From a virus, in the IMG/VR virus record IMGVR_UViG_3300025913_000024, positions 1-47,477 of that record: DNA of 47,477 bases; one strand, given 5' to 3'. Under the pieces are notes generated by a model, which was not told the DNA's origin, did not search any database, and saw only the letters and a list, made by a program, of their open reading frames with translations. Positions 13,519-47,477 of the stretch are shown one piece after another. The stretch's first letter is position 1. Each line of letters opens with the position of its first letter. The position numbers and the translations under genes are program-made.

Positions 13519-14343
13519 CTATTGTTTTCCATACACAAGACAAAACTTTGGGATCAAACTACTGTCTATACTATAGCCTATAAGCTCTGATCGTAGATAC
13601 GTGTAAAAAGTGTAAGGATTTCCATTTTCTCGTATAAAGAAGGACTCTATGGGAGTCTTTGTTTTTGTTACGTCATCGAACAAAGATATCCACATTCCTT
13701 CTTCAACCTTCTCTGAACTTAAGTTGTAAGGTTTACTTTCAATGTAGTACTCATATTCTTTTTCTTTCATTAACTCCCAAACATCCCACATGTTTGATTG
13801 AAGTTGATAGATCTCTTTAGACTTTAATAATCCACAAAACTCTTTGAAGGTTTTATGACTCTTAGGAAGAGGAATGAACTCATCTAAATCTACAAATAGA
13901 TTCCAACATCCTTTACCTATTTTATTCCAAAGAGAACGAAAGATTCCTAATTGAAAGAAGTTAAAAGGCATTCCTAACTCAACAGGGTTTTCGATAAAAA
14001 AACAATCGAAATGAAGACTAAACAATTGTTTAGCTACATCTGCATCTGGAAAATTATTGTCAAGAAGGACTACAGCTCTAGTCTTTGATGGAAGTCTAAG
14101 ATGATAATATTCAATGAACCTTGGAAGATCGAGTACTGAACCACAAACCACCCAAAGAATAAACTCAGTCTTTGGTAGATTAAAGAAAGGATCGTTTTTA
14201 TTGATCAATCCTTGAGTTCTTGAGTTCTTAGGAAACTTTGAGAATTTATCAGTAGATAAAGGTTGAAGAACCTCTAGAGGTTTAGAGTGATGAACTTCTA
14301 ATCTTTTTTGAATCAGGTTTTGGTTTAAATTTTTGGTAAACAT
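13519..14343 (-). CDS. Glycosyltransferase, GT2-like with DxDEF motif
   Basis: A 274-residue protein. The region near residues 65-100 (EFILWVVCGSVLDLPRFIEYY) and the motif FVDLDEFIPLP (near residue 150) match the family 2 / family 92-like glycosyltransferases, in which DxDEF binds the metal and nucleotide-sugar. The substrate is unknown; phage versions modify virion proteins, DNA bases or host surface glycans. The gene is AT-rich compared with the tail genes on both sides, which together with the next entry suggests a later insertion in the tail cluster. The ATG lies 62 bases inside the 3' end of the upstream gene and has no strong ribosome binding site. Confidence 0.68.
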   Translation of the reverse strand: MFTKNLNQNLIQKRLEVHHSKPLEVLQPLSTDKFSKFPKNSRTQGLINKNDPFFNLPKTEFILWVVCGSVLDLPRFIEYYHLRLPSKTRAVVLLDNNFPDADVAKQLFSLHFDCFFIENPVELGMPFNFFQLGIFRSLWNKIGKGCWNLFVDLDEFIPLPKSHKTFKEFCGLLKSKEIYQLQSNMWDVWELMKEKEYEYYIESKPYNLSSEKVEEGMWISLFDDVTKTKTPIESFFIRENGNPYTFYTYLRSELIGYSIDSSLIPKFCLVYGKQ

Positions 14344-20943: not shown

Positions 20944-22044
20944 TTACTCTCCTTCTAATTCATTTTCTCCGAAGTTAAATGCTTCGGAGTATCTTTGATG
21001 CAAACTTGATCTAATTGTGTCTAACCATTTTCGTTTTCTAAAGGACTCAACGGTCTTATTTAACTTTTTGGTTATGTCGCCAACATCCTTAATATACATG
21101 GTTTTAACTACGTGGGTTTTAGGATCAATACCTTGATATTGAATCTTTGGGATCTCAAGAATTGAGAAAGAAAATCCTAATTCTTCTTTTAGTTTTTTGA
21201 CTACTTTCATCCCAGCGATGTCTCTATCTGGAATTAGAATGATTTGAGAAAATCTTTTTAGCAGATGAATCTGCCTACGAGAAATTGATGCGCCAAAGAT
21301 GGCTGTGCTGTTCTTGAAAAAAGGATCTGTTCTAAGGATCGCTAGGTCCATTAATCCTTCAACAACATAAAGGGGTTTTGTTGGATCTAAGTTCTCAAGA
21401 TCATAAAGAGAAGAAACTGTTGTGCCAACAGGATATAGAACCTTTTTATCTTGATCACCAACTACGTCTCGACCTTCAATCGAGATTAGTTTATCGCCTT
21501 CGTAGATGGGTATGACCAATCTGTTAGTAAAATGAGTGTAGTAATCTAGTTCTTTAGAACCCTTGATCTTGATATTAGATGCCCAACCCATTTGCATGGC
21601 ATGTGCCACTTCAAACGGGATGCCTCTAGATCGTAGGTACTTAACAGCTAAGGGACTACTTGAAAATGGTTCAATCGAGCCTTCTTTCATCTCAATTTGA
21701 ACATCTTTATCCAGGATATCTAAGTTTTCTTGTTCGTAATTAGAATGATACTCCATCGCTTGTTGATGGAACTCATCGTTCGAAAGGCCGAGATCTTGGT
21801 AAAGAGATCTCTCTGTGAGATCCCAATACATACCTGCAATTGTTCCAGATTTACTGCAACCAAAACAGTGATAAATGCCGAGATCTACGTTGACTGCACA
21901 AGAAGCAGTCTTCTCATCATGAAATGGGCATCGAATAAAGATGCGATGGTGCCAAGAACGTTCTGGCGTGGCACAATGTAAGTGTAATCTATGAACGGCT
22001 TCAGATACCAAAACTTTTGGATCTATCGTGTGTTGGAGAGGCAT
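20944..22044 (-). CDS. DnaG-type DNA primase
   Basis: A 366-residue primase. An N-terminal CHC2 zinc finger is formed by C39, H42, C60 and C63 (CPFHDEKTASC ... HCFGC). The TOPRIM catalytic core has the metal-binding motif VVEGLMD near residue 227 and LIPDRDIAG near residue 276. It lacks a C-terminal helicase domain, so a separate helicase is expected elsewhere in the genome. It makes RNA primers for lagging-strand synthesis. Upstream lie two CRP/FNR-like palindromes (22062-22118), a rare arrangement for a phage replication gene. The ATG is preceded by AAGGGTTAAAT. Also unusual: it lies in the same strand block as tail genes. Confidence 0.88.
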   Translation of the reverse strand: MPLQHTIDPKVLVSEAVHRLHLHCATPERSWHHRIFIRCPFHDEKTASCAVNVDLGIYHCFGCSKSGTIAGMYWDLTERSLYQDLGLSNDEFHQQAMEYHSNYEQENLDILDKDVQIEMKEGSIEPFSSSPLAVKYLRSRGIPFEVAHAMQMGWASNIKIKGSKELDYYTHFTNRLVIPIYEGDKLISIEGRDVVGDQDKKVLYPVGTTVSSLYDLENLDPTKPLYVVEGLMDLAILRTDPFFKNSTAIFGASISRRQIHLLKRFSQIILIPDRDIAGMKVVKKLKEELGFSFSILEIPKIQYQGIDPKTHVVKTMYIKDVGDITKKLNKTVESFRKRKWLDTIRSSLHQRYSEAFNFGENELEGE

Positions 22045-22601: not shown

Positions 22602-22810
22602 GATCAGTTAGTCTCTATCTTCAACCTCTTCTCAATTTGGGCTGGCCCTAAGTATTTCTATTCTTATTATGTTAGATTCTTATATATGCTATCTGACTTG
22701 CACACTGTTCATAGTAGTCAATCTAACAAACTATAGACTAAATAGATAAAACATAATTCATTTACGGTGAACAGGTTCTCGAGTATACTCTGTCAATAAG
22801 GAGTACGGGG
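22602..22810. promoter_or_regulatory. Divergent control region between minus and plus gene blocks
   Basis: A 209-base AT-rich gap with no gene. A 9-bp inverted repeat, TGTTAGATT at 22670-22678 and AATCTAACA at 22720-22728, spans 59 bases. A sigma70-like promoter facing right can be drawn from TTTACG (22761-22766), a 17-base spacer and TATACT (22784-22789), giving a transcript that begins next to the AAGGAG at 22798-22803. A left-facing promoter may lie around CATATATAAGAATC, but no good -35 was found. Promoter calls are by eye. Confidence 0.45.
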
Positions 22811-23311
22811 TTGTTAAAGATTACACCACGAACTGTCAGACGCCAAATCAAAGACGCTGCCGAGTTCATCCAGTACAAAAACATCTCTCCAATGGAAGAG
22901 ATGAGACAAGACGCAAAGCCTGTGAACTTCGGACTTATGTTCGGGTCCAGTGCCAGAACGTTCGTTAACGCTGTTCTAGAAACCCGTTGGACAGAACAGC
23001 AGTGTGACGATTACATAGAGTCCAACAACCTCTATGACTTAAAAGACCAAATCATCGCTAGGAACCCAAGAGACACCCCTGTGTTTTGGAAGTACTTGAC
23101 CTGTGCCTCAGACATTCGAAACAAGTTCTTCAACACCTACAAAGGACTGAAGGAAAGAATCGACCGAGAAAGGGTCTTTGCTTATCAGCACGGATACGTC
23201 AGAAGTTGGCATGGCCAGGTAAGAAGAATCCCAGAGCTCTTCATCATGGACCACACTGATGCAGGTCGACCATCTGGAGACGACAACTCTCTTTACTCTA
23301 GGGTCATCTGA
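22811..23311 (+). CDS. Family A DNA polymerase, C-terminal region, first fragment (ends at in-frame TGA)
   Basis: A 166-residue fragment of a Pol I-like polymerase. RQDAKPVNFGLMFG near residue 37 is motif B (the fingers O-helix, which binds the incoming dNTP). A finger/palm stretch follows (FFNTYKGLKERIDRE, YVRSWHGQVRRIPEL). The 3'-5' exonuclease domain and palm motif A, which should precede motif B, are absent, and upstream DNA holds no frame that could encode them. Yet the TTG start has AAGGAG seven bases upstream, so this looks like a deliberate start of a split polymerase subunit. The frame is interrupted by TGA at 23309-23311; the polymerase sequence continues in the same frame beyond it. 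Confidence 0.75.
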   Translation: MLKITPRTVRRQIKDAAEFIQYKNISPMEEMRQDAKPVNFGLMFGSSARTFVNAVLETRWTEQQCDDYIESNNLYDLKDQIIARNPRDTPVFWKYLTCASDIRNKFFNTYKGLKERIDRERVFAYQHGYVRSWHGQVRRIPELFIMDHTDAGRPSGDDNSLYSRVI

Positions 23312-23767
23312 AACCTTCAGAACATTGCTTCTAACACCTCTATTCAGAATTTCGAAGCAAGCATAGTCATGCCTGCCATCATTGAACTTCATATGTGGTT
23401 TCATGAGAACAAGATGAAGAGCTTCATCTGGAACTCTGTTCACGACTCTATTGACCTTTGCATCTATCGACCAGAGTTGGACATCGTGGCAGCTAAGATC
23501 AAAGAAGTCTGTACAGACTCTAAGATCTACAAGAACCTTGGTCTTTTCAAAGATTGGGGACTTAACATGGATATCGACATGATGGTAGCTGACTTGACAG
23601 ACCCCAATGAGTACTACAAGGGTGGAAAGAAGTACAAGTTCAAGGACGATGTCGAGGTTACTCCTTCTACGAAGATCAAGATAGACCCAAAGCTTAGAGA
23701 GATGGAAGAAGCTTGGTTCCCAAAGAAGAAAGTTCCAACCCGTAAAGTACGGTCTCAAAAGTCTTGA
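23312..23767 (+). CDS. Family A DNA polymerase, second fragment with motif C, in frame after TGA
   Basis: Codons after the TGA continue the polymerase without a frame change: NLQNIASNTSIQNFEAS corresponds to the conserved palm helix with Asn and Gln before motif C, and FIWNSVHDSIDL contains the catalytic His-Asp pair of motif C. If translated alone, the first ATG is at 23369, which would lose the Asn/Gln helix, and no good ribosome binding site precedes it. So the fragment is either reached by TGA readthrough, or the gene is a recent pseudogene, or the TGA is a sequencing error. The tail (residues after 100) is Lys-rich. It ends in TGA 12 bases before the ligase start. Confidence 0.7.
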   Translation, partial: NLQNIASNTSIQNFEASIVMPAIIELHMWFHENKMKSFIWNSVHDSIDLCIYRPELDIVAAKIKEVCTDSKIYKNLGLFKDWGLNMDIDMMVADLTDPNEYYKGGKKYKFKDDVEVTPSTKIKIDPKLREMEEAWFPKKKVPTRKVRSQKS

Positions 23768-23779
23768 GATATTGTAGCC

Positions 23780-25159
23780 ATGCTTGAAGCCTCATTTCCC
23801 AGCTTGCGCTCCTTCGTTCAGGAGTGCCAGGCGAATACTTCCTCGAACGCTAAGAAAGAGATTCTTACCAGGTACCCTGACCTGAAAGAGATTTTTCAGT
23901 ACGTTTACAATCCGTACATCAAGTTCTACACCACCTCTGACAACGTGAAAAAACAGAGCAAGGCTCTTCAGAGTGAAGGTCCGAACCTCTTTGGAGGGAA
24001 GGGATTGCCTCTTGGAAATCTCAACGTCCTTCACGGAGCTCCTGCTCCTAAGGACTTCAAGGAAGTCTTGGATCAACTCTCAGCCAGAACCTTGTCTGGT
24101 TTTGAAGGAATCAAAGCCATCCTCAAGGTTGTCAAGAACAACAAGCTCTATGAGGATCTGATCTACATGATCCTGGACAAGGATCTGAAAGTTCGAATCG
24201 ATGTCAAGTCGATCAACAAGGTCTATCCTAAGTTGATCCCGACCTTCAACGTGGCTTTGGCCAACAAGTACAAGGACGTTGAGGATAAGGTTGACTTCGG
24301 AGCTGATGAGTGGTTCGCCTCTCACAAGCTGGACGGTTTCCGTTGCATCACGGTTGTGGATGGAAACGGAAAGGTCACTTGTTACACTAGAACAGGAAAT
24401 GAGTACAAGACCTTAGGTCGAGTGATCGAAGAGATCAAGCGTCTTTATCCCACCTTGAGAAACACCGTGTTTGATGGTGAACTCTGCATCGTGGATGAAA
24501 AGGGAGCTGAGCACTTCGACTGGATGCAAAAAGAGTGGAACAAAGACAACCACACCATTGCCTTCCCAAGGTATAAACTCTTTGACATGTTGACCCTCGA
24601 CGAGTTCACGACTGAAGAATCTACCAGAGATCTTCTTACCCGTCTTGAGGCCTTGAATGACATGCTTCTTCCTTCCAAGATCCTTAACATGCTCGAACAA
24701 AAGATAGTTATGAGCAAGATTCATCTTGATGATATGGCCAAAGACGCCGATGATAAGGGTTGGGAAGGTTTGATCATCAGAAAGAACGCTCCTTACCTTG
24801 GAAAGCGCAGCAACGATCTTCTCAAGGTCAAGACGTTCGAAGATATTGAAGTTGTAGTTGAAGGTATTGAAACCGGACCCTTCAGGTACGTCAAGAACAA
24901 AGCCGAAGCCGAAGAAGAGATGATGACCTCCATTTACTTCACATTCTTTAGCGAAAAGCTTCAGAAGAGTAACCGTGTGGACGTCGGCTCTGGTTTCTCA
25001 ATCGAACAGCGTCAAAGGTTCTTTGCTCACCCTGAGGAGATCATTGGAAAGACCATCACGGTTAAGTACTTTGAAGAAACAATTAACTCAGATACAGGAC
25101 TTCCTTCTTTGCGTTTTCCAGTGTTGAAGACCATCTGGGAAAATGGGAGAGATGAATAA
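23780..25159 (+). CDS. ATP-dependent DNA ligase
   Basis: A 459-residue ligase. The adenylation motif I KLDG has the nucleophilic Lys at residue 183 (ASHKLDGFRC). Motif III is FDGEL, motif IV EGLIIR, motif V LLKVK. A C-terminal OB-fold contains GSGFSIEQRQRFF and IIGKTITVKYFEE. The N-terminal ~170 residues form a helical DNA-binding domain. It seals nicks in replication and recombination. No Shine-Dalgarno is seen before the ATG, which lies 12 bases after the polymerase stop inside a TGAGATATTGTAGCCAT segment also found upstream of the rIIA-like gene. The next gene overlaps it by one base (TAATG). Confidence 0.92.
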   Translation: MLEASFPSLRSFVQECQANTSSNAKKEILTRYPDLKEIFQYVYNPYIKFYTTSDNVKKQSKALQSEGPNLFGGKGLPLGNLNVLHGAPAPKDFKEVLDQLSARTLSGFEGIKAILKVVKNNKLYEDLIYMILDKDLKVRIDVKSINKVYPKLIPTFNVALANKYKDVEDKVDFGADEWFASHKLDGFRCITVVDGNGKVTCYTRTGNEYKTLGRVIEEIKRLYPTLRNTVFDGELCIVDEKGAEHFDWMQKEWNKDNHTIAFPRYKLFDMLTLDEFTTEESTRDLLTRLEALNDMLLPSKILNMLEQKIVMSKIHLDDMAKDADDKGWEGLIIRKNAPYLGKRSNDLLKVKTFEDIEVVVEGIETGPFRYVKNKAEAEEEMMTSIYFTFFSEKLQKSNRVDVGSGFSIEQRQRFFAHPEEIIGKTITVKYFEETINSDTGLPSLRFPVLKTIWENGRDE

Positions 25160-28648: not shown

Positions 28649-29281
28649 ATGAACCCTACGTTTAACTCTCTGTCTAAGTGGACAGATGATCTTTTTTCAG
28701 CTATTGATACAGTAGCTAATGATTTCAACAACTCTATTGTTGGAAACAACTCTAACAGTGGATATTGGGTAGGAGATTATCCTCCTTCTTTTCCTGTTGA
28801 TCCGTGGCCCACAAAGTGGATCTACGAGCCTTACATCAAGTTCTATCCTCAGATCATTGAGGTCATCACGACTGTGGTGAAGGACCAAGGCTCTCCATGG
28901 AGAGATTCTCCAAACTTCCCTCCTGTCAACATTGATCTAAACCCTGTCACGAAGGAACTTCGTTTCACTTGGGCTCTCGCTGGTGTCCGTAAGGACCATG
29001 ACGTCGAGATTGAGTTTGATTCTGATAAGTTGATCCTTCATATTAAGGCCAAGGAAACTGATACTGAAACTAAGGATTCAGAAGAAGTAACCGGAGAGAT
29101 CAAATGGGCTTCTCTAAAACAAGGAATCAAGACCAAGGTCGTTGGAGACTACTCTTACGATGTGGCTGGTTCCAGATATGATGTAGCCAAGGCTGTTGCT
29201 AAGTGGGATGATGGTCTCTTGACTGTTACTCTTCCTCTTAGAGAAGAGGCTAAGCCCTTCAAGGTTCAGATCCAGAGTTAA
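28649..29281 (+). CDS. Small heat shock protein, Hsp20 / alpha-crystallin family
   Basis: A 210-residue protein. The alpha-crystallin domain covers about residues 85-205: VNIDLNPVTKELRFTWALAG, VEIEFDSDKLILHIKA, and the C-terminal AKWDDGLLTVTLPLREE, the last matching the A-x-x-x-G-L-L-T-V-x-L-P consensus strand. The N-terminal ~85 residues are Trp/Pro-rich and variable, as usual. Such chaperones prevent aggregation and occur in T4-like phages of marine and other bacteria, where they may help virion assembly. Shine-Dalgarno AGGAGG lies 6 bases before the ATG. A strong terminator follows. Confidence 0.85.
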   Translation: MNPTFNSLSKWTDDLFSAIDTVANDFNNSIVGNNSNSGYWVGDYPPSFPVDPWPTKWIYEPYIKFYPQIIEVITTVVKDQGSPWRDSPNFPPVNIDLNPVTKELRFTWALAGVRKDHDVEIEFDSDKLILHIKAKETDTETKDSEEVTGEIKWASLKQGIKTKVVGDYSYDVAGSRYDVAKAVAKWDDGLLTVTLPLREEAKPFKVQIQS

Positions 29282-40171: not shown

Positions 40172-41380
40172 TTACTCCGTCAACTTTGCAAACACAACGT
40201 CAAGGTCTCTTTGTCCTGAAGAGTTCTCAAGATAGAATCTAACACCCGCTCCGTTCTGTTCATCTGGTTTTGCATCGTTAAACTCAAGAGTGACTTGGTC
40301 ATCATCGCTGAGTGGTTCAATAGTTGTCTTGAGTGCATCACTGATGAGGATGAACTCTGCGTTCTCAATCTCTGGTTGAGTCTGTTCAATGATCTCTTCT
40401 ACATCAAGAACCTTGTTGATGTCTGTGGTAGGATGTTGATACTTGAGGTTCAAGATCTTTTGATCGGTCCACTCAAACGTGATTGGCTTCCAGATGCTAG
40501 CCTCGTACATGCCTGAGAAGAACTCAATAGCTTCCTTGAGCTTAGAAACCTTGATACCTAGTCTGGTTCGTCTAAGAGCATCAGGTGTGATTGCTTCAAG
40601 GTCTGAGTCACTAGGGATTGAGATGTTACAGGTTTCCACCATGATAATGAACCTGAAGTTCTTCACATAAGGGTGTTCCCAACAAACTGTTCTAGTAGCT
40701 TCGTCATAGTAGACAACGTCTGTCTGCTCTAGAAACTCGAAAAGACTGAGAACGTTCTTATGTAGAGAAAAGAAATCCAACTTGGAGTTTCCATAGTTAG
40801 CTGTCCCGTTCTCTCTGTAGATGATCGTTCTGTCAGCGTAAATCAAGTGATCCGGATAAACAGCGATCGAGTTGTTCTTGATGTTCACCCCCATGAAAGA
40901 CATGGCTTTCTTAGAGAAGGTCATGAACTCAGGAGAGAGTTGAAGCTGAACACCCTTGTCCTTGATCGCAGGAGATCTGTTGTCATAGAATGACATCAAC
41001 TCCACTAGATCTGGATTGGTGAGTTCAATGTTGTTGACACTCAAGGTGATCCTATCATCCACAGCACCCTGAAGTCTCAGGGTGGTAGGAGTGAAGGTAT
41101 AGATCATTTGAAGGTCGCCTTGTCCTGCGGTCTTCTTTGCTGCGTTGACAAACTTAGAGATGTCACACAATACAGCGAAAGGAGTCTCTACCTTTTCCTT
41201 GAGAGGGATCTCATAGGAGAACATGGACTTCACTCCCTTCAAGTAAACCTTGAGGGAGGTGTCCTGTAGAACGAGGTAAGATTTAGAAAAGGATGACATG
41301 AGGTAACTGAAAAGCTTGTTCTTGAGGACGATAGCTTTTACAGAATCATTTGATAGAGTTGTTCGTACTATGTTAGCCAT
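40172..41380 (-). CDS. Sliding clamp candidate (DNA polymerase processivity factor)
   Basis: A 402-residue protein that looks like a clamp: repeated beta-alpha-beta segments (MFSYEIPLKEK, LQMIYTFTPTTLRLQG, ITLSVNNIELTNPDL), and an end (RDLDVVFAKLTE) that recalls the C-terminal strand of beta clamps. The length is closer to the bacterial beta clamp (about 366) than to T4 gp45 (228). Its neighbours are recA/uvsX upstream and the sigma gene downstream, and the clamp loader is also in this window, so the role is well supported by context. No decisive motif exists in this family. Confidence 0.65.
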   Translation of the reverse strand: MANIVRTTLSNDSVKAIVLKNKLFSYLMSSFSKSYLVLQDTSLKVYLKGVKSMFSYEIPLKEKVETPFAVLCDISKFVNAAKKTAGQGDLQMIYTFTPTTLRLQGAVDDRITLSVNNIELTNPDLVELMSFYDNRSPAIKDKGVQLQLSPEFMTFSKKAMSFMGVNIKNNSIAVYPDHLIYADRTIIYRENGTANYGNSKLDFFSLHKNVLSLFEFLEQTDVVYYDEATRTVCWEHPYVKNFRFIIMVETCNISIPSDSDLEAITPDALRRTRLGIKVSKLKEAIEFFSGMYEASIWKPITFEWTDQKILNLKYQHPTTDINKVLDVEEIIEQTQPEIENAEFILISDALKTTIEPLSDDDQVTLEFNDAKPDEQNGAGVRFYLENSSGQRDLDVVFAKLTE

Positions 41381-46885: not shown

Positions 46886-47477
46886 ATGAAAGACCATGTG
46901 ATCACCGACAACGTCATTACAAACATGCCTTCGTCAGGTCGAAACTTTACCATCAAGGCATCGAGAAAATCCTTCCAGGTTTTGTCCAGCGGTCTTTATG
47001 AAGACAAGATCAAGGCCATCATCAGGGAGATCTCTTGTAATGCTATCGATGCACACGTTGCCGGTGGACAAACAGAAAAGAGATTTCAGGTCCATCTTCC
47101 TACCAACTTTGAACCTTGGTTCTCGGTCAAAGACTTCGGTATCGGAATGGATGAAAACACCGTGAATGATGTTTTTACTTCTTATTTTACATCCACCAAA
47201 AGTACTTCCGATGATTACATCGGAGCTATGGGACTCGGTTCAAAGAGTCCCTTTTCTTACACGGACTCCTTTACTGTCACGTCAATCAAGGATGGGATCA
47301 AGGTCAAGTTCGTAGCCGTTATCAACAATGAAGGCGTCCCTGATCTTCTTCCTCCTTTGGAGAATGGTCCCACGGATGAGCCTTCTGGAACGGAACTTTC
47401 CTTCCCTGTTGATACCACAGATTGTGAGACTTTTGCTGAAAAAGCTGTTAGAGTCTTCATGCACTTTGATGAAGATA
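46886..47477 (+). CDS. rIIA: rIIA-like GHKL ATPase, partial (cut by window edge)
   Basis: An open frame from the ATG at 46886 to the end of the window (197 codons seen). The N-terminal GHKL (HATPase) motifs are plain: REISCNAIDAH, VKDFGIGMD and GAMGLGSKSPFSYTDSF, matching T4 rIIA protein and not the histidine kinase or MutL variants. T4 rIIA with rIIB acts at the membrane to overcome lambda Rex-type exclusion. GGAG lies 12 bases upstream of the ATG. Confidence 0.82.
   Translation, partial: MKDHVITDNVITNMPSSGRNFTIKASRKSFQVLSSGLYEDKIKAIIREISCNAIDAHVAGGQTEKRFQVHLPTNFEPWFSVKDFGIGMDENTVNDVFTSYFTSTKSTSDDYIGAMGLGSKSPFSYTDSFTVTSIKDGIKVKFVAVINNEGVPDLLPPLENGPTDEPSGTELSFPVDTTDCETFAEKAVRVFMHFDED

What the first reader, a model, noticed from the sequence alone, without database searches (positions are those of the whole stretch)
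22811..23767. Split family A DNA polymerase with an in-frame TGA between motif B and motif C
The fragment starts at a TTG with a proper Shine-Dalgarno, after motif A would have ended, so the exonuclease and half of the palm are missing. A single TGA (23309-23311) then splits the remaining catalytic part, with conserved polymerase sequence continuing in the same frame. TGA serves as a normal stop for many neighbours, so it is not a general sense codon. Possible readings: a polymerase assembled from separately encoded pieces, regulated readthrough, or a decaying gene. Its downstream part carries the catalytic HDS, so loss of readthrough would abolish it.
Basis: partly seen in the sequence, partly recalled or inferred. 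Interest (0 to 1): 0.8.

Follow-up and report, generated by a model that had tools for sequence, protein, structure and literature searches.

The report
Phage DNA polymerase in two genes

Summary
The window is part of a 111 kb fragment of a circular, roughly 305.7 kb phage genome; a nearly identical, complete sister contig (G001, IMG/VR) exists. (1) The TGA at 23309-23311 is in the window, but the sister has GGA there. It is the only difference in 957 nt, no opal suppressor tRNA was found, and other differences also break genes in the window's record. It is most likely an error or a defective variant. (2) The split is real. The missing half (693 aa: exonuclease, thumb, motif A) is encoded in the sister 96 kb away on the opposite strand, with its own start and stop. 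The 318-aa half in the window carries motifs B and C, so the catalytic aspartates sit on different proteins. The break is in the fingers loop before the O helix; both halves have extra residues there, with no detectable intein or intron. No other DNA polymerase of family A, B or C was found. (3) A 115-bp element occurs three times in the genome: 76 and 78 nt before the two polymerase genes, and before a helicase gene. Best reading: a co-regulated two-subunit family A polymerase assembled without splicing, like the T4-type 43A/43B split but in another family, unlinked, and cut through the active site.

The parts
22621..22735 (+). shared upstream element (115 bp), 76 nt before the C-half start codon; core ATTCTTAT-N8-ATTCTTATATATGC at 22660-22689
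   Evidence: 75% identical to the element 78 nt before the N-half gene and 73% to one 55 nt before a helicase gene; exactly three copies in G001 by nhmmer (E<=1e-32; next best E=3)
22799..22804 (+). Shine-Dalgarno AAGGAG
   Evidence: read from sequence
22811..23767 (+). C-terminal half of a split family A DNA polymerase (318 aa when the TGA codon is Gly, as in the sister genome)
   Evidence: DNA_pol_A and phrog_17 matches; intact open frame in sister contig G001:298926-299882
22811..22903 (+). N-terminal extension of the C half before motif B; no detectable homology
   Evidence: motif A-B spacing 134 residues over the split against a median of 53 in 72 phage PolAs; predicted low-confidence helix
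22904..22945 (+). motif B (O helix), RQDAKPVNFGLMFG
   Evidence: R32, K36, N39, F40, G41, G45 invariant in alignment A6
23309..23311 (+). in-frame TGA; GGA (Gly) in the sister genome; probable base error or defective variant
   Evidence: only mismatch in 957 nt; other coding-strand G-to-T differences in the same record, one also making a stop
23441..23446 (+). motif C His-Asp (VHDSID)
   Evidence: H211, D212 invariant in alignment A6
20944..22044 (-). neighbour: DnaG-type primase
   Evidence: phrog_47 E 2e-35
23780..25159 (+). neighbour: ATP-dependent DNA ligase
   Evidence: phrog_114 E 8.6e-80

Best explanation
A large phage encodes its only detected DNA polymerase, of family A, as two polypeptides. 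The N half (693 aa; sister contig G001:90522-92603, minus strand) carries the 3'-5' exonuclease, thumb and motif A. The C half (318 aa; window 22811-23767) carries the fingers O helix (motif B), the rest of the palm and motif C. SHOWN by sequence: two separate genes, each with its own start and stop; nearly all catalytic residues conserved across the two; the break in the fingers loop before the O helix; extra residues on both sides of the break; a shared upstream element at nearly equal spacing. INFERRED: both genes are co-expressed from that element, and the two proteins fold and bind each other without covalent joining, using the extensions and the shared palm sheet, to make one active proofreading polymerase. 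The TGA is inferred to be a one-base error or a rare defective variant, not a feature of the gene.
For: N half found in the 305,833-base sister contig (phrog_17 642-1050, E 2e-65), C half 1051-1259, with no other phrog_17 match; N half is L011:10522-12603(-), ATG start, TAA stop, the stop overlapping the next gene's AAAGGAG. G000 and G001 are 99.97-99.99% identical; a 123-b terminal repeat makes G001 circular, so the halves are 96,349 b apart on opposite strands. Residues invariant in 51 phage PolAs are kept: D305, Y361, D365, D595 and others in N; R32, K36, F40, G41, H211, D212 in C. No family B or C polymerase in G001. Element before both genes (76 and 78 nt) and a helicase only, three copies in the genome. 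Models of both halves match PolA structures. TGA is GGA in the sister. Precedent for assembly: 43A/43B of Aeromonas phage 25 co-purify and are active (PMC2988022).
Against: No relative with the same split was found in the viral, isolate-phage or genome collections, so conservation over evolution cannot be shown. The N half is seen in one assembly only. Motif A has Gln600 in place of the nearly invariant Glu, and the C half has Asn171 at a nearly invariant Arg, so activity is not certain. No complex could be modelled; the monomer models are only moderate (pLDDT 75-76) and the extensions are low-confidence. The C-half model matches PolA with low TM-scores.
Confidence: 0.76

Rival explanations
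1. Protein trans-splicing: the N-half tail and the C-half head are a divergent split intein that ligates the two halves.
For: Phage split inteins at broken genes are known (e.g. split PolB of MIJ3, PMC6892783). By eye, the tail VKTTKGVKPAYSLKPEDELVF and the head MLKITPR resemble Hint-domain stretches. A PolA gene elsewhere (G003) carries a long in-frame insert that looks like an intein.
Against: About 80 extra residues in total is shorter than a usual Hint fold; no intein family hit for the tail plus head at E<=5 in Pfam and no PDB sequence hit at E<=10; no Cys/Ser nucleophile at a plausible junction and no terminal His-Asn plus Cys/Ser motif before motif B.
Confidence: 0.07
2. RNA trans-splicing: the two transcripts are joined by a split group I or II intron.
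For: Group I introns in phage polA are common; one lies at motif B in Aeromonas phage HJ05.
Against: No intron match near either half at E<=1, while the same search finds the HJ05 intron at E 0.0026. The N half ends in a TAA that overlaps the next gene's ribosome site, and the C half has its own ribosome site and start codon.
Confidence: 0.04
3. Decay: the split polymerase is a dead remnant and the phage replicates with the host's or an unrecognised polymerase.
For: Motif A Glu to Gln and an Arg to Asn change in the C half; the TGA in this record; no relatives to show selection.
Against: Two long intact ORFs in the sister with nearly all catalytic and exonuclease residues; a common upstream element at matching spacing; C half beside primase and ligase; no other polymerase found.
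Confidence: 0.1
4. The TGA is real and biologically used (regulated readthrough or recoding).
For: It is in the record's consensus; conserved sequence continues in frame.
Against: GGA in the otherwise identical sister; no tRNA with a TCA anticodon; the same record has a second coding-strand G-to-T stop (13521) and frame-breaking differences at 1194 and 86506 relative to the sister.
Confidence: 0.03

Closest known systems
Split gene 43 (43A/43B) DNA polymerase of T4-related Aeromonas phages 25 and 44RR (PMC2988022, citing Petrov et al. 2010)
   Same: A phage replicative polymerase made as two polypeptides by two genes; the pieces co-purify and are active.
   Different: Family B, not A; split by a seg endonuclease gene or an untranslated spacer, so the pieces stay neighbours. 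Here the genes are 96 kb apart on opposite strands.
Split family A polymerase of OM43 phages MEP401/MEP402 (ORF13/ORF15, PMC10580990)
   Same: A family A polymerase in two ORFs.
   Different: Adjacent genes with a small ORF between, possibly an intron. Their cut lies before motif A, so the second piece starts with motif A and keeps motifs A, B and C together; here motif A is separated from B and C.
T5-like and other phrog_17 phage DNA polymerases
   Same: Domain order, motifs and remote sequence similarity (about 20-28%).
   Different: One continuous gene; motif A to B spacing about 53 residues, not 134.
Split minimal DNA polymerase III alpha of group 2.2 jumbo phages (PMC7824862)
   Same: Two distantly located genes predicted to reconstitute one polymerase.
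   Different: Family C (pol-beta-like) fold, accompanied by a family B replicase; here family A and no second polymerase found.
Split polB with intein of jumbo phage MIJ3 (PMC6892783)
   Same: Jumbo phage polymerase gene in two pieces.
   Different: Family B, neighbouring genes, recognisable intein blocks and an HNH endonuclease; none detected here.

Membership tests
DNA polymerase family A (Pfam PF00476) | significant match to the family profile | tested here: met
   C half 63.2 bits, N half 70.4 bits against a cut-off of 34.3
DNA polymerase family A (Pfam PF00476) | catalytic Asp of motif A and of motif C, motif B R...K...FG | tested here: met
   D595 in N; R32, K36, F40, G41 and D212 in C, invariant in 52-sequence alignments
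DNA polymerase family A (Pfam PF00476) | Glu of motif A (E710 in E. coli) | tested here: not met
   Gln600 in the N half (sequence; column nearly invariant Glu). The residue is described as accessory in phage Tt72 pol (PMC9324360), so this lowers confidence in activity more than in descent
DNA polymerase family A (Pfam PF00476) | all motifs on one polypeptide (usual, not defining by descent) | tested here: not met
   motif A on G001:90522-92603(-), motifs B and C on G001:298926-299882(+)
split polymerase working as assembled subunits (43A/43B-like) | two separate intact genes with complementary parts | tested here: met
split polymerase working as assembled subunits (43A/43B-like) | pieces bind each other and polymerise | not testable with these tools
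   needs co-expression and an assay
split intein | recognisable intein N and C parts at the break | tested here: not met
   no Pfam match at E<=5 and no PDB sequence match at E<=10 for tail plus head
trans-spliced group I/II intron | intron halves flanking the break | tested here: not met
   positive control in HJ05
stop-codon readthrough or recoding | stop codon conserved among close relatives | tested here: not met
   GGA in the sister genome
stop-codon readthrough or recoding | phage-encoded suppressor tRNA for TGA | tested here: not met
   47 tRNAs with a read anticodon in the pieces scanned, none TCA

The most novel reading that the evidence does not exclude
An obligate two-subunit family A replicase whose metal-binding aspartates lie on different proteins encoded at unlinked loci. 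The extra residues at the break act as a dedicated docking module, and a shared leader or operator balances the two subunits and a replication helicase, possibly by feedback from the polymerase itself.
Probability: 0.35. Interest if true: 0.75.

Novelty: new variant of a known kind. Interest (0 to 1): 0.58.

Why it matters
Split replicative polymerases are known in T4-like and a few other phages, but in the cases found here the broken pieces are neighbours or keep the polymerase motifs together. A family A enzyme cut through the fingers, with its active site shared between two proteins made from genes 96 kb apart that share a unique upstream element, would be a natural example of a two-part PolA. 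It would offer a naturally chosen site for dividing a Klenow-type polymerase and a case where co-regulation of an unlinked two-gene enzyme can be studied. It also shows that the suspected recoded stop is probably a data error, which matters for scans of this kind.

Tried and rejected
Searches of IMG/VR with the C half, the N half and three degenerate motif patterns found only the sister contig, apart from one unsplit polymerase 29% identical to the N half. One genome-collection scan found no relatives. Loci that at first looked like other split PolAs turned out to be single frames with a long insert (G003), truncated by contig or locus ends, or first-Met artefacts. Terminase profile phrog_2 found nothing, so the phage was not placed. 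RNA folding of the shared element gave no support (z 0.48, -1.08, 0.13), so a DNA-level promoter or operator is more likely than an RNA structure; sigma-70-like hits there are at chance level. The HNH-like ORF before the third element has no Pfam match. MAFFT at first aligned the N tail to motif B; the homologues were trimmed before modelling. A one-base stitching slip in my first reading of the phage fragment was corrected.

Full report
CHECK OF THE OBSERVATION. Read through, the frame is the motif B to motif C part of a family A DNA polymerase. The window's record (G000) is a 111,477-base virus record, and a search of all of it finds no other PolA piece.

THE SISTER GENOME. One close relative was found in IMG/VR: contig IMGVR_UViG_3300009093_000034 (G001, 305,833 b), identical over the 957 nt except at 23309, where it has G, giving GGA (Gly) in place of TGA. 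G000 matches G001 at 99.97-99.99% over its whole length, running across the ends of G001, which carry a 123-b repeat; G001 is therefore a closed circle of about 305.7 kb.

THE TGA. Fewer than twenty base differences, plus a tandem duplication, separate the 111 kb of G000 from G001 (two of the listed ones, at 47477 and 65999, were a stitching slip of mine, corrected). The four clean single-base differences inside genes of the window (13521, 16838, 23309, 25459) are all G in G001 and T in G000 on the coding strand. Two of them make stop codons in G000 (23309 and 13521, the latter splitting a 407-codon frame), and indels at 1194 and 86506 break frames in G000 that are longer in G001. At 41156 the frame is longer in G000, so G001 is not free of errors. 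The phage encodes many tRNAs but none with a TCA anticodon was found. The simplest inference is damage or read error, or a rare defective variant; readthrough has no support. Reads were not available.

THE MISSING HALF. In G001 a phrog_17 search returns two places only: 298986-299813(+), the C half, and 90675-92051(-), profile 642-1050. The second is a 693-aa ORF (G001:90522-92603, minus) with exonuclease and polymerase domains. Its TAA overlaps the ribosome site of the next small gene, and the C half has its own ribosome site and start, so this does not look like a break left by misassembly in mid-gene. The loci are 96,349 b apart on opposite strands; G000 simply ends about 9 kb short of the N half.

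ANATOMY. Against 51 other phage PolAs, the N half keeps the exonuclease residues (D233, E235, D305, Y361, D365) and motif A Asp595; the C half keeps R32, K36, N39, F40, G41, G45 (motif B) and H211, D212 (motif C). Two near-invariant residues are changed: Glu to Gln600 in motif A and Arg to Asn171 in the C half. The break lies between the helix after motif A (DLHSLTAFNVF) and the O helix. In 72 phage PolAs the spacing from the motif A Asp to the motif B Lys is 53 residues at the median (range 50-149), so this loop tolerates inserts; here 99 + 35 = 134 residues span the break. The extra residues match nothing. AlphaFold models of each half (pLDDT 75-76) match PolA structures in the PDB; both extensions are low-confidence. 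In the N-half model the palm around motif A is less confident (about 60-70) than most of the exonuclease and thumb (about 90 or more), as expected if its sheet is completed by the C half (inference).

SHARED ELEMENT. A 115-bp stretch upstream of the C half (window 22621-22735) is 75% identical to one upstream of the N half, including an identical 31-base run (ATTCTTATTATGTTAGATTCTTATATATGCT), and the two end 76 and 78 nt before their start codons. A third copy (78% to the N copy over 166 bp) stands 55 nt before a helicase gene with a Helicase_C domain. nhmmer finds exactly these three copies (E<=1e-32; next E=3), and in a self-comparison no other dispersed family with three copies like this stands out in the genome. 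No RNA structure is supported. I infer a promoter or operator for a small replication regulon that includes both polymerase halves. A remnant of the event that split the gene, or another function, is not excluded.

NO SPLICING DETECTED. Rfam finds no intron at either locus, although the same search finds the group I intron at motif B of Aeromonas phage HJ05 polA. No intein family matches the junction residues. No family B or family C polymerase was found in G001.

COMPARISON. Split polymerases that work as assembled subunits are known: 43A/43B of Aeromonas phage 25 co-purify and are active (PMC2988022). MEP401 and MEP402 have a split family A polymerase, but in neighbouring genes and cut before motif A, so that motifs A, B and C stay together (PMC10580990). 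Group 2.2 jumbo phages have a split family C-type enzyme at distant loci (PMC7824862). MIJ3 has a split PolB with an intein (PMC6892783). I found no report in the held literature of a family A polymerase split between motif A and motif B at unlinked loci, though most subscription papers are not held.

VERDICT. The best-supported reading is a two-subunit, co-regulated family A replicase assembled without splicing. Activity and assembly are inferred, not shown.

Noticed in passing
G001:159775-159849 (L039:19775-19849): A tRNA with amber anticodon CTA (ARAGORN calls it Pyl) at the end of a large tRNA cluster (about 108-160 kb); possible amber suppressor, so TAG may be read as sense in some genes. 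Not tested.
   Followed up: no
G001:178720-178843, helicase gene from 178888: Third copy of the element shared by the polymerase halves stands before a helicase gene; the ORF just upstream (177982-178716) has an HNH-like Cys/His pattern but no Pfam match.
   Followed up: partly
window 13519-13521: A premature stop in the window's record splits a 407-codon frame that is open in the sister genome; again a G-to-T difference on the coding strand.
   Followed up: partly
G000:79.7-79.9 kb: A roughly 105-bp tandem duplication in the window's record that is single in the sister genome.
   Followed up: no
L011:12797-14485 (G001:92797-94485): A GroEL-like gene is divergent from the N-half gene, with the shared element close to its start; the window also has an HSP20-type gene (28649-29281).
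   Followed up: no
L019:3240-3930 (Aeromonas phage HJ05): Group I intron with an HNH-like ORF interrupting the polymerase gene at motif B; the two exons are annotated as separate hypothetical proteins.
   Followed up: partly
G005:2372-4135 (record behind L111): Another phage PolA frame with one in-frame TGA in a viral contig.
   Followed up: no
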